Shown here piece by piece: positions 6,125-34,170 of a stretch of DNA of 34,170 nt. The DNA is taken from assembly GCF_010672085.1 (NCBI RefSeq), contig NZ_JAAHHT010000066.1, positions 3,063 to 37,232 of the forward strand. The letters run 5' to 3'. The notes beneath the pieces are model-generated. The model made no database searches. It was not told the origin of the DNA and saw nothing but the letters and a program-made list of their open reading frames with translations. This stretch comes from Okeania sp. SIO3I5 (GTDB lineage Bacteria > Cyanobacteriota > Cyanobacteriia > Cyanobacteriales > Microcoleaceae). Both the position numbers and the translations under genes were made by a program. Position 1 is the first letter of the stretch, and the number at the start of each line of letters is the position of its first letter.

Positions 6125-6223
6125 GAGATACAGTTTTAGATCCCCCCTGCCCCCCTTAAAAAGGGGGGAGTCTTCAAAGTCCCCCTTTTCAAGGGGGATT
6201 TAGGGGGATCGTAACTGTACCTC
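6125..6223. repeat. Long GATCCCCC inverted-repeat element
   Basis: gagatacagttttagatccccc at the left and gggggatcgtaactgtacctc at the right are inverted copies. Between them lie two internal C/G-run hairpins (cccccttaaaaagggggg and cccccttttcaaggggg). This kind of nested hairpin repeat is common between cyanobacterial genes. The whole 5641-6302 spacer holds this and copy 4 of the dispersed family; no gene is seen. Confidence 0.8.
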
Positions 6224-29752: not shown

Positions 29753-30640
29753 TCAAAGAACAACTTCTGACTTTCGAGTGCTTCTCAGAATGAAAAATTT
29801 GGGGAAGGGAGGAAATGTTCGAGAGCCTCAAAAGCAACTTCTGACTTTCGAGTGCTTCTCAGAATGAAAAATTTTTGGAAGGGAGGAAATTGTCGAGAGT
29901 CTCAAAAGCAACTTCTGACGTTCGAGTGCTTCTCAGAATGAAAAATTTGGGGAAGGGAGGAAATTGTCGAGAGTCTCAAAAGCAACTTCTGACGTTCGAG
30001 TGCTTCTCAGAATGAAAAATTTGGGGAAGGGAGGAAATTGGCGAGAGTCTCAAAAGCAACTTCTGACTTTCGAGTGCTTCTCAGAATGAAAAATTTTGGG
30101 GAAGGGAGGAAATTGTCGAGAGCCTCAAAAGCAACTTCTGACTTTCGAGTGCTTCTCAGAATGAAAAATTTTTGGAAGGGAGGAAATTGTCGAGAGCCTC
30201 AAAAGCAACTTCTGACTTTCGAGTGCTTCTCAGAATGAAAAATTTTTGGAAGGGAGGAAATTGTCGAGAGCCTCAAAAGCAACTTCTGACTTTCGAGTGC
30301 TTCTCAGAATGAAAAATTTTTGGAAGGGAGGAAATTGTCGAGAGTCTCAAAAGCAACTTCTGGCTTTCGAGTGCTTCTCAGAATGAAAAATTTTGGGGGA
30401 GGGAGGAAATGTGCGAGAGCCTCAAAAGCAACTTTTGACTTTCGAGTGCTTCAGAGAATGAAAAATTTTGGGGAAGGGAGGAAATGTGCGAGAGCCTCAA
30501 AAGCAACTTCTGACTTTCGAGTGCTTCTCAGAATGAAAAATTTGGGGAAGGGAGGAAATTGTCGAGAGTCTCAAAAGCAACTTCTGACTTTCGAGTGCTT
30601 CTCAGAATGAAAAATTTTTGGGGAAGTAGAGAGACTTTCA
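29753..30640. repeat. 74/75-bp tandem repeat array (about 12 units)
   Basis: ctcaaaagcaacttctgac (or one-base variants) starts at 29827, 29901, 29975, 30049, 30124, 30198, 30272, 30346, 30421, 30496 and 30570: a 74-75 bp period. A related partial unit precedes it from about 29753. Each unit includes tgcttctcagaatgaaaaa and a gaagggaggaaat stretch. Since 74 is not a multiple of 3, repeated peptides in open frames (for example at 30038-30610) are incidental. Spacers between the conserved words are themselves repeated, so this is not a CRISPR array. Confidence 0.95.
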
Positions 30641-30943: not shown

Positions 30944-31028
30944 TACTGATAACTGAAAAAGCTGATAACTGAAAAAGCTGATAACTGAAAAAGCTGATAA
31001 CTGATAACTGATAACTGATAACTGAAAA
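30944..31028. repeat. GATAACT heptad and 16-bp tandem repeats immediately before the DGR target gene
   Basis: Three copies of a 16-bp unit (gctgataactgaaaaa) are followed by four gataact heptamers that run into the gene's start codon. They occupy the normal ribosome-binding-site position. The last 19 nt including the ATG (31014-31032) recur exactly at 33171-33189 at the RT truncation point. Confidence 0.92.
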
Positions 31029-31960
31029 GATGCGTTGCCTAAACTGCCATACCGACAGTCTTCCACTAGACACAGAAATATGCCCCGAATGTGGCGCATA
31101 TCTACCATCACTCATGCGCGACCTTCTAAAACCAGATAGCCAACTCCGCGCCGAGACCTATCAAATAGACTACCCCCTGGGTAGAGGAGGGTTCGGTGTT
31201 ACCTATAGAGGACACCATACATTATTACAACAAGTAGTCGCCATCAAAGAATACTATCCCCAAAACTACGCCCTGCGCCACCCTACCACTGGCGGTTTTA
31301 CCATTCCCACAAATCAACAAGAAATATTTCAACGGGGCTAAAAAGGTTTCTGCGGGAAGGGCGAATATTAGCAAAACTCAATCATCCTCATGTGGTAAGG
31401 GTGACAGATTTATTTCAAGAAAATGATACAGCTTATCTCGTGATGGAATTAGTCGCAGGTAAAAGTCTCAGAAAAGAATTAGACACCCAACCTCAGAAAA
31501 AATTTTCCCCTGAAAAAGTTAGAGAAATAATTTATCCTCTCGTATCGGCATTATCGGCAGTACATCAACAAGGAATATTTCACCTGGATATAAAACCGGA
31601 TAATATCTTACTTACTCCCGAAGGGCGGTTAGTCTTGATCGACTTTGGCTCGGCAAAACAAACCTTCGGTACGCGGATGGGTAGTTCCAGCACTCGGACT
31701 TTTACCGAAAATTATGCCGCACCAGAAGTTATCGCCGGAGGAGAAGTGGGAGTGGAGAGCGATATTTTTGAAGTGGGGATGATGGTCTATGAAATGTTGA
31801 CTGGGCAGTTACCTCCTAATGCTTTGCAACGTTTATTATTAAAAGGAAAAAGTTGGCAACCGGAAGGTTTACAGTCACCTTGGCAAGAGTTGGTAATGTC
31901 AGCTTTGGTTTTTGAACCGGAAAGTCGTCCTAGAAATATTCAGGAATGGTGGGAGATACA

Positions 31961-32066
31961 ATTCAAAATTCAAAATTCAAAATTCAAAAGTCAGAAGTTA
32001 GGAAGTAGAAGTGAGGAGATAGGAAGTAGGAGTCAGGAGATAGAAAGTAGAAGTGAGGAGTTAGAA
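31961..32066 (+). repeat. In-frame heptanucleotide repeats encoding a heptapeptide linker
   Basis: Four attcaaa heptamers (31961-31988) then, after one base, eleven heptamers of the (g/a)(t/a)(c/t/g)agga/gaa type (31990-32066) inside the coding sequence. Three 7-mers equal seven codons, so the protein gains a 7-residue period: LGSRSEE, IGSRSQE, IESRSEE, LEEI. Hydrophobic Leu/Ile recur every seventh residue. Confidence 0.88.
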
Positions 32067-32866
32067 GAAATATCTGCCTTTTCTTCTCTGGGAAAGATAA
32101 ATTTACCTTTATTTTCAAGAGGGAAGACGTCGAAAAAGACTTCTGAAAAAATATCTCCTTTTCCCAAGGGAGTAAGGAGGGATAAATTTAGTTTTGAGGT
32201 AATAAAGGTTGACTCACGAGGGAAAAAAACTAACCGCCGTCGCCACGAAGCAGAATTTTTTACGGAAGATTTAGGTAGGGGGGTGGTATTAGAAATGGTT
32301 TATATTCCTGGGGGAAGTTTTCTCATGGGTTCGCCGAAAAATGAGGCAGAAAGATATTCTGATGAAAGTCCGCAACATGAAGTAACTCTCCAACCTTTCT
32401 TTATGAGCAAATATCCTATTACTCAAAACCAGTACCAAGTCATTATGGGAAAAAATCCTTCTCGGTTTAAAGGAGGAAGTCGCCCAGTGGAAAGGGTGAG
32501 TTGGCATAACGCTACAGAGTTTTGTCAAAAGCTATCTAAGAAAACTGGGAAAATTTATACCCTGCCTAGTGAGAGTCAATGGGAATATGCCTGTCGCGCC
32601 GGAACAACTACTCCTTTCTATTTTGGAGAAACTATAACGTCTGACTTAGTTAACTACAACGGTAACTTTCCTTATGGCAATGCTCCTAAAGGAAAGTATC
32701 GAAAAGAAACAACGGATGTGGGAAGTTTTCCTCCTAATGCTTTTGGTTTATACGATATGCACGGGAATGTTTGGGAATGGTGTCTAGATATTTGGCACGA
32801 TAATTATGATGGAGCGCCTACCGACGGAAGTGCTTGGGAGACTGGGGGAGATAATAATAGAAGACT

Positions 32867-32985
32867 GCTCCGTGGCGGTAGCTGGATCAACATTTCTAGG
32901 TATTGCCGTTGCGCCAGGCGTAACTACTACGATGCCGTCTACCTCTTCAACCTTTGGGGTTTTCGGATTGTCTCGTCTGTCTCGG
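32867..32985 (+). other. Inferred DGR variable region (VR) at the 3' end of the target gene
   Basis: Codons after RGGSW are dominated by NNC/NNT: atc aac att tct agg tat tgc cgt, then aac tac tac gat gcc gtc tac, then ctc ttc aac ctt, before TGG GGT TTT CGG. In DGRs the corresponding template has AAY codons; the RT mutates A, so the third base stays C or T while the first two vary. That is the pattern seen. Position (lectin-fold C-terminus, RGGSW...GFR) is the canonical VR site. No template copy exists in the window to prove it. Confidence 0.7.
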
Positions 32986-33009
32986 TCGTTTCTGTCTCTC
33001 GTTCCTAGG

Positions 33010-33102
33010 ATTCTTCCCCTTTATTCTTTTCCCCTTTTCCCCTTTATTCTTTTTTCTTTTTTCTTTTTCCAGTTCCGCTAAAGCGGATCGAAATTTTTTT
33101 TA
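33010..33102 (+). other. Pyrimidine tract and CCGC-TAAA-GCGG hairpin downstream of the VR
   Basis: 33010-33070 is almost purely C and T with an internal repeat of cccctttattctttt. It is followed by tccgc-taaa-gcgga at 33074-33087 and a T-run at 33094-33101. The hairpin could be a terminator or the type of stem-loop that marks DGR target sites; both are inference. Confidence 0.5.
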
Positions 33103-33162
33103 CAGAGAATGTTTAAATAAATCAAACCTATGGAAAAATAATTATGGGACTGACCAAACAAA

Positions 33163-33170
33163 GCTCCGTG
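33163..33170 (+). other. Possible stub of the DGR template repeat
   Basis: gctccgtg here equals the first bases of the inferred VR (32867-32874), directly abutting the 19-nt heptad junction at 33171. In a complete DGR the template repeat lies between target and RT. Eight bases are weak evidence. Confidence 0.3.
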
Positions 33171-33182
33171 ACTGATAACTGA

Positions 33183-33542
33183 AAAGATGATTTTGCCTTA
33201 TTCTCCGACAACAAAGAATTTTTAGCGATCGCTAGACAAAAAATCGAAACATACCTAGCTAACTTTCGCCTCAAAATTCATCCCGTTAAAAGCCAATTAT
33301 TTCAAACAAATCAAGGAGCCAACTTTGTCGGTTTCCGAGTATTGCCAGACCGCATTAGAATACGTTCCGAAAATTTAAGAACAGCCAGAAAAAAATTCAG
33401 ACAATTGCAGAAAGACTACCAACTGGGAAAAATAGAATCTAGCCAAATTCAAAAGTCTCTACAAAGTTGGTTTGCTCATTTAGACCACGGCAATACCTGG
33501 CATTTGAAACAAAAAATATTAACACTATCGAACCTTCCTTGA
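33183..33542 (+). pseudogene. Truncated reverse transcriptase (DGR-type), C-terminal part only
   Basis: 119 open codons with no start of their own, preceded by a stop (33180-33182). The frame opens KDDFALFSDNKEFLAIARQK, that is, exactly at the Asp-Asp of the YxDD catalytic motif. It continues with LRLKIHPVKSQLF and FVGFRVLPDRIRIRSENLR (RT motifs 6-7), and a C-terminal helical region with SLQSWFAHLDHGNTW, typical of DGR and related bacterial RTs. All N-terminal RT motifs (1-4) and the YA of YADD are absent, so it cannot be active. Its position after a lectin-fold target gene identifies it as the retroelement's RT. An ATG exists at 33187 but in another frame; ATG 33342 gives only 66 aa. Confidence 0.85.
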
Positions 33543-33564: not shown

Positions 33565-34170
33565 CCAATTCATTTTCTGAAGCACTCCTAGAAAAAGTCG
33601 AAATTTCCTTTTCCATCCAATTTCCTTTAACTACTCAATTTTTTTCATTCTCTGAAGCTCTAAAAGAAAAAGTAGTAAAACCCAATCCATCCGTGTATCT
33701 CTGGTAAAGTCTTTGTCTGCGCGTTTTCATTCTCTGAAGCTCTACAGGAAAAAGTAGGGAAACCCAATCCATCCGTATATCCGTGGCAAAATCCTTGTCT
33801 GCGCATTTTCATTCTCTGAAGCACTCCAGAAAAACGCCGATTCTCTGAAGCACTGCGAAAGAAAGTAGCGATCGCCTCTTCTCTCCAACTTTACCTTAAC
33901 TACTCAACCAATTCATTCTCTGAAGCACTCCTAGAAAAAGTCGAAATTTCCTTTTCCATCCAATTTCCTTTAACTACTCAATTTTTTTCATTCTCTGAAG
34001 CTCTAAAAGAAAAAGTAGTAAAACCCAATCCATCCGTGTATCTCTGGTAAAGTCTTTGTCTGCGCGTTTTCATTCTCTGAAGCTCTACAGGAAAAAGTAG
34101 GGAAACCCAATCCATCCGTATATCCGTGGCAAAATCCTTGTCTGCGCATTTTCATTCTCTGAAGCACTCC
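33565..34170. repeat. 343-bp tandem repeat with inverted GTGCTTCAGAGAATG cores
   Basis: ccaattcatt(t/c)tctgaagc starts at 33565 and 33908 (period 343); the second copy matches the first almost perfectly and runs off the window end. Each contains four or five copies of ttcattctctgaagc(a/t)ct, which is the reverse complement of the core in the arrays at 29090-30790. No gene is supported in 33543-34170. Confidence 0.92.

What the first reader, a model, noticed from the sequence alone, without database searches (positions are those of the whole stretch)
31030..33542. Damaged diversity-generating retroelement with a kinase-FGE target
Seen: a Zn-ribbon/kinase/FGE-sulfatase fusion whose 3' end is full of NNC/NNT codons between RGGSW and WGFR, followed at 175 bp by a partial reverse transcriptase. 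Established: DGRs diversify lectin-fold (often FGE-sulfatase) C-termini by A-specific mutagenesis from a template repeat, and cyanobacterial DGR targets include kinases. Inference: the target may still be diversified in trans by an intact RT/template elsewhere in the genome, since multi-target cyanobacterial DGRs are known. If so, a ligand-sensing domain is being tuned on a signalling kinase.
Basis: partly seen in the sequence, partly recalled or inferred. Interest (0 to 1): 0.78.

Follow-up and report, generated by a model that had tools for sequence, protein, structure and literature searches.

The report
Dead diversity generator with orphaned targets
A filamentous cyanobacterium carries the wreck of a gene-diversifying retroelement: its template and most of its reverse transcriptase are gone, yet about a dozen genes elsewhere in the genome still bear the mutations it appears to have made.

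Summary
The window has a kinase/FGE-sulfatase gene ending in a DGR variable repeat (VR, 32867-33008). An intact cassette in Okeania sp. SIO2C9 (VR gene - TR1 - Avd - RT - TR2) shows what is missing.

Mutation is A-specific. Against the Okeania TR1, 13 of 29 A positions and 2 of 71 others differ; against an own-genome paralog, 15 of 30 A columns and 0 of 69 others (one more beyond these 99).

Thirteen VRs lie in this genome, but genome-wide searches found no intact TR, spacer or DGR-RT, so diversification in trans today is not supported. The kinase is frameshifted.

Across 12 genomes of the group (own included) this RT is intact in 1, broken in 5, not found in 6; VR-like places remain in 12. 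In two, the TR start is joined at the same nucleotide to a four-helix-bundle (S23/IVP) gene between inverted heptamer arrays. Such arrays flank 13 of 42 S23 loci against 2 of 3000 random segments: a new lead on TR loss.

The parts
30945..31032 (+). tandem heptamer (TAACTGA-type) array ending 'GATAACTGAAAAG' directly before the kinase ATG
   Evidence: Tandem Repeats Finder, 30945-31025; exact 16-mer GATAACTGAAAAGATG at 31017 and again at 33174
31030..31341 (+). 5' fragment of the target gene: CxxC motifs and kinase N-lobe (glycine loop), closed early by a stop
   Evidence: ORF; relative's protein aligns in frame 2 up to about 31365
31335..31365 (+). frameshift separating the kinase N-lobe from the rest
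   Evidence: tblastn of a relative's kinase protein switches frame here
31392..33008 (+). kinase C-lobe (HLDIKPDN) fused to FGE-sulfatase (CLec-type) domain
   Evidence: Pfam 4.7e-35 and 5.1e-56
32867..33008 (+). variable repeat (VR); changes against TR1 lie between 32887 and 32955 in the first 99 columns compared; 3' part nearly constant
   Evidence: 13/29 A vs 2/71 other columns against Okeania TR1; against own paralog C133 15/30 A and 0/69 others in the first 99 columns, plus one difference at 32987
33071..33092 (+). small hairpin downstream of VR (stem 33074-33078 / 33083-33087, loop TAAA); its first T-A pair is C-G in the Okeania locus
   Evidence: similar string behind the cassette target of G000, G050, G047, G006, G001, stem imperfect in some; the loose pattern also matched other loci; role inferred
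33129..33170 (+). TR1 5' flank plus the first 8 bases of the template repeat (33163-33170); rest of TR1 lost
   Evidence: C526:36190-36232 matches Okeania TR1, 93%; alignment to L079 ends at 6202
33171..33185 (+). heptamer filler ACTGATAACTGAAAA at the deletion junction
   Evidence: sequence; 19-bp exact match (33171-33189) to an array in G002
33186..33542 (+). C-terminal third of a DGR reverse transcriptase (starts inside YVDD); first start codon in its frame is TTG 33342
   Evidence: 90% over 113 aa to Okeania RT residues 233-345; PHROG 1423 1.6e-25; ORF list

Best explanation
This is the relic of a multi-target DGR of the Trichodesmium/Hydrocoleum/Okeania group. Shown: the presumed ancestral layout (VR gene - TR1+spacer - Avd - RT - TR2+spacer) is intact in Okeania sp. 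SIO2C9; in the window TR1 is cut after 8 bases and joined through 15 bp of heptamer repeat to the last third of the RT, so the rest of TR1, its spacer and RT residues 1-232 are missing, Avd is not found in the window or the rest of the contig's end, and no TR2 follows the RT; the VR still carries adenine-specific changes. Inferred: the DGR worked as usual (TR RNA copied with errors at A, cDNA retrohomed into VRs), went on diversifying after this lineage split from the relatives, and was then lost, probably recently, by recombination or insertion at heptamer repeats. The VR genes left behind are an orphaned, fixed repertoire.
For: VR vs TR1: 13/29 A vs 2/71 non-A. Window VR vs own paralog C133: 15/30 A columns differ, 0/69 others, with one further difference in the last 43 bp, although the 300 bp upstream differ at 47/300: expected if both VRs were overwritten from one template after the genes diverged. 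Cassette targets of the window and of G050 and G047 differ at 20/30 A columns each but at 3/69 and 2/69 others. Twelve own-genome VRs without indels differ pairwise by 0.60 per A column and 0.14 per other column. Positive control, Okeania with intact RT and TRs: its four DGR-like VRs differ from their TR at 10, 14, 9 and 9 of 29 A positions and at 0, 0, 2 and 5 of 71 others; four more FGE places of a tandem array do not fit (8-18 A, 14-21 others). TR1 flank remnant. No other DGR-RT, TR or spacer found in the own genome. The RT fragment has no stop in 113 codons and 16 synonymous vs 12 nonsynonymous codon differences from Okeania, in keeping with recent loss.
Against: The assembly has 562 contigs, so an intact cassette in a gap cannot be excluded outright. 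The TRs compared are those of relatives. No reads or strains were available to show that the VRs are fixed now. Avd was sought only in the window, the contig end and six relatives' loci, not genome-wide. Some of the 13 VRs have many non-A mismatches (up to 14/71), i.e. old or other divergence.
Confidence: 0.87

Rival explanations
1. One reading: the targets are still diversified in trans by an intact DGR elsewhere in the genome or in an assembly gap.
For: 13 VRs with a strong A-specific pattern; fragmented assembly; T. erythraeum IMS101, of a related species, has two DGR-RTs and metagenomic signs of activity (PMC8867640, section 9 read).
Against: Genome marked 99.98% complete; RVT_1, full Okeania RT, TR1+spacer and TR2 queries find no second DGR core. 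The one cassette locus present is itself deleted.
Confidence: 0.08
2. Assembly artefact: the junction at 33170-33186 is a misjoin and the true locus is intact.
For: Heptamer repeats lie at the junction.
Against: The repeat at the junction is only about 15 bp; no hit at high identity to RT residues 1-230, to the TR with flank, or to the spacer was found elsewhere in the assembly; TR loss at heptamer arrays is also seen in G002 and G050.
Confidence: 0.04
3. The VR-like ends are ordinary divergence among FGE paralogs and the RT piece is a group II intron remnant.
For: The genome is full of group II intron RTs and of FGE genes; NCBIfam's only hit to the fragment is group_II_RT_mat, 24 bits against a cut-off of 300, and the same model is the best NCBIfam hit of the Okeania RT.
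Against: 15/30 A against 0/69 other differences; fragment 90% identical to an RT that sits beside Avd, TR and VR.
Confidence: 0.01

Closest known systems
Multi-target DGRs of cyanobacteria with kinase-CLec variable proteins (PMC7517822; passages read)
   Same: kinase-CLec/FGE targets, remote VR paralogs, TR/VR relation; the paper also reports a putative degraded DGR in Anabaena sp. 90 (RT only) and remnant TR-VR homology in Nostoc PCC 7120 all3226
   Different: here TR and most of the RT are deleted while 13 VRs remain; the TR flank and the deletion junction are visible
DGRs of Trichodesmium erythraeum IMS101 (Tery_1035, Tery_1728; PMC8867640, section 9 read)
   Different: IMS101 shows hypervariable VRs in metagenomes; the MAG's related RT is frame-broken and the window's is deleted. 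IMS101 itself was not compared here
TAACTGA heptamer repeats of Beggiatoaceae and cyanobacteria (PMC4679880; passages read)
   Same: same heptamer unit as at the junction and before the kinase; the paper speculates on mobile carriers
   Different: 'S23', '23S' and 'four helix' do not occur in the text; inverted arrays around S23 genes were found here

Membership tests
Diversity-generating retroelement (functional) | DGR-type reverse transcriptase | tested here: not met
   only residues 233-345 of 353 align; no other found in the genome
Diversity-generating retroelement (functional) | template repeat | tested here: not met
   flank plus 8 bases left; no TR with flank found in the own genome
Diversity-generating retroelement (functional) | spacer RNA downstream of TR | tested here: not met
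   query L079:6160-6410 gives no own-genome hit beyond query position 170; none in the window or fetched own loci
Diversity-generating retroelement (functional) | accessory protein Avd | tested here: inconclusive
   not in window or contig end L041; not searched genome-wide; Okeania's passes NF033474 (137 bits, cut-off 80)
Diversity-generating retroelement (functional) | VR with adenine-specific differences in a CLec/FGE C-terminus | tested here: met
Diversity-generating retroelement (functional) | ongoing retrohoming | not testable with these tools
   no reads or strains
Relic of a DGR | recognisable parts in the order of an intact cassette, with disabling lesions | tested here: met
   VR gene - TR1 flank - RT end in the order of Okeania L079, core deleted
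Functional Hanks-type kinase | N-lobe and C-lobe in one frame | tested here: not met
   frameshift 31335-31365 in this assembly; a sequencing error is not excluded

The most novel reading that the evidence does not exclude
S23/IVP-like four-helix-bundle genes bounded by inverted arrays of tandem heptamers are a class of small mobile element that spreads the heptamer repeats of cyanobacteria. Twice they landed at the same nucleotide of a DGR template repeat; in the one case where the far side aligns (G050), about TR plus spacer was replaced. The window's heptamer junction would be a third, decayed case. S23 is a distant relative of Avd, so the element may recognise the DGR template RNA or DNA. 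Its landing would switch the mutator off and freeze the target repertoire.
Probability: 0.17. Interest if true: 0.78.

Novelty: new member of a known kind. Interest (0 to 1): 0.5.

Why it matters
DGR targets are usually studied where the mutator is alive. Here the mutator seems to have died recently while its targets remain, and several sister genomes show other stages of decay. That makes it possible to ask whether a hypermutated receptor set is kept, frozen or lost once mutation stops. The S23-heptamer association, if it holds, would also offer a carrier for heptamer repeats whose spread is unexplained.

Tried and rejected
Looked for an own-genome TR with a partly A-wildcard pattern, up to 3 mismatches (only the VR itself) and by ungapped A-wildcard scans of fetched loci (VR paralogs; the other high scores are A-rich chance stretches). 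The C22 hit looked like a TR tail but lacks the TR body: rejected. C35:54908, the own-genome place most like TR2 (88%), lies in a 667-aa ORF: a VR, not a TR.

Kept as weak: identical or near-identical VR pairs between genomes. G000:C35:57048 and G049:C88:302054 (0/30 A, 2/69 other), G004:C304 and G005:C37 (0/30, 2/69), G048:C35 and G050:C44 (0/30, 3/69). The first two pairs are 99% or more identical over the adjacent 600 bp upstream, the third 96% over 300 bp, so little time may have passed; they show only that no DGR rewriting happened since. The window VR has no such partner among the places compared; its nearest differ at 15.

Dropped or biased rows: one search kept places with at least 66% of the non-A TR positions; TRs were left out of its tallies; tandem FGE arrays (G047:C24:54xxxx, G048:C112, G049:C66, G050:C212) and truncated places (G046:C556, G005:C441) were left in and raise the non-A rate. 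C38 (indel) was dropped from the pairwise mean. First S23 flank tests used poor motifs and missed most of 29 loci; replaced by tblastn-anchored tests. Of 42 S23 loci, 29 do not meet the inverted-array test; six have direct arrays, three of them also inverted. The random control was drawn from DGR and FGE loci and the window, not matched for intergenic position, and the S23 loci are not independent.

Papers: PMC4143802 (Pfreundt 2014) is not held, known only through PMC8867640. Searches that could have shown DGR loss or S23 with heptamers gave capped listings (titles and abstract starts) with no description of the latter seen; a weak negative. That the GxxxSQ motif marks DGR-RTs is recalled, not from a call.

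Full report
WHAT IS THERE. The window is part of contig C526 of a 10.5 Mb assembly of 562 contigs, marked 99.98% complete. ORF 31392-33008 has kinase and FGE-sulfatase domains. Its 5' part, ORF 31030-31341, is in another frame; a relative's protein switches frame at 31335-31365. So the target as assembled is a broken gene, or carries a sequencing error there.

THE MISSING CORE. RTs like the fragment (33186-33542) occur in the same or neighbouring genera: 5 of 7 genomes of the genus (own included) and 15 of 61 of the family have a match at E 0.001, a few of them weak. Okeania SIO2C9 has the whole cassette: VR gene, TR1 (L079:6195), Avd (NF033474, 137 bits), RT of 353 aa, TR2 (L079:8477), with a spacer 91-92% alike behind the two TRs and detectable in other cyanobacterial and two Thiomargarita-type loci. 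Aligned to it, the window runs from the FGE domain to the eighth base of TR1, then 15 bp of heptamer repeat, then RT from residue 233 on. No TR2 follows the RT.

ADENINE-SPECIFIC MUTATION. Against TR1 the window VR differs at 13/29 A and 2/71 other positions (p = 6.9e-7). Within the own genome, the window VR and the VR at C133 differ at 16 of 142 places: 15 are among the 30 A columns of the first 99, none among the other 69, and one lies at 32987; the 300 bp upstream differ at 47/300. In Okeania, where the machinery is whole, four DGR-like VRs differ from their TR at 9-14 of 29 A and 0-5 of 71 other positions; two of the four show 0/71. Cassette targets in the window and in G050 and G047 differ at 20/30 A columns each, and at 3/69 and 2/69 others. 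The DGR therefore worked after these lineages parted.

THIRTEEN TARGETS, NO MUTATOR FOUND. One search finds 13 VRs in the own genome (the window's included), with 189/377 A and 98/923 non-A mismatches summed. In the ORF reading nine are long (541-668 aa). The other four: C526 (frameshift), C133 (171 aa, near a contig end), C92 (136 aa, kinase motif upstream outside the ORF), C201 (430 aa, cause not examined). Of 31 RVT_1 places in the genome one is the fragment; I compared the other 30 with an own group II intron RT and with the Okeania DGR-RT: 29 are far nearer to the former, one (C3) is retron-like and near neither. TR queries with flank and spacer hit only VRs and the remnant.

A DYING SYSTEM IN THE CLADE. 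Over 12 genomes, own included: this RT is intact in 1 (G047); broken, truncated or interrupted in 5 (G000, G001, G002, G003, G006; G006 also holds a run of N); no match above 33% identity in 6 (G004, G005, G046, G048, G049, G050). TR whole in 3 (G047, G006, G001), cut at its start in 3 (G000, G002, G050), not found in 6; of these six, G005 has a spacer at a contig end, so its TR may lie just beyond. VR-like places remain in 12 of 12, some of them FGE arrays that are not DGR targets. G001 also has a second, different DGR-RT (61%, one stop flagged). Several genomes are draft or metagenome bins, so breaks may partly be assembly errors. Low-identity RTs of the other genomes were not classified.

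A LEAD ON HOW. In G050 (TR1) and G002 (TR2) the TR stops at the same base (GGTAGCT) and continues into heptamers (CAGTTATC), an S23/IVP-like ORF, and heptamers in the other orientation. In G050 the Okeania sequence resumes at L079:6510, so 298 bp, about TR1 plus spacer, are replaced by 475 bp; Avd, RT and TR2 are missing further on. In G002 the far side does not align to Okeania. The same S23 subfamily lies at C142 in the own genome with such arrays. Over 42 S23 loci from two searches, 13 have inverted tandem heptamer arrays on both sides, with different heptamers in different lineages, against 2 of 3000 random segments; six have direct arrays, against 16 of 3000, three of the six being among the 13. 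S23 shows weak similarity to Avd (NF033474 5.4e-5, 23 bits, cut-off 80). Whether these are mobile elements is inference. The window's 15-bp filler fits the right end of such an element but equally any heptamer array, such as the one before the kinase.

COMPARISON. Kinase-CLec targets, remote VRs and a degraded DGR are already in print for cyanobacteria (PMC7517822, passages), as are the two DGRs of T. erythraeum (PMC8867640, section 9). What is added here is the anatomy of one loss, the orphaned 13-VR set, the decay across sister genomes, and the S23-heptamer junctions.

Noticed in passing
L233 (G000:C142), L192 (G050:C61), L081 (G002:C377), L249-L290: S23/IVP-like four-helix-bundle genes flanked by inverted tandem heptamer arrays (units AGTTATC, ACAGTTG, AATTACG, AGTTTTG by lineage): 13 of 42 loci vs 2 of 3000 random segments; candidate mobile element.
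   Followed up: partly
window 29753-30626 and 33642-34165: 74-bp tandem repeat, 11.7 copies, with the motif GTGCTTCTCAGAATGAAAA upstream; downstream of the relic 82-bp and 75-bp units carry CATTCTCTGAAGC in the opposite sense.
   Followed up: no
L084 (G001:C237): second DGR-type RT in the T. erythraeum MAG (61% identical to Okeania's) beside its own RGGSW...GFR genes.
   Followed up: no
L167, L169, L171: Thiomargarita/Thiotrichaceae contigs hold RTs 54-58% identical to the fragment; L169 and L171 also have spacer-like DNA, suggesting exchange between these groups and cyanobacteria.
   Followed up: no
L079:6320-6490 and relatives: conserved noncoding spacer behind the TR, detectable at about 69-82% in several distant cyanobacterial DGR loci; could be modelled as an RNA family.
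   Followed up: no
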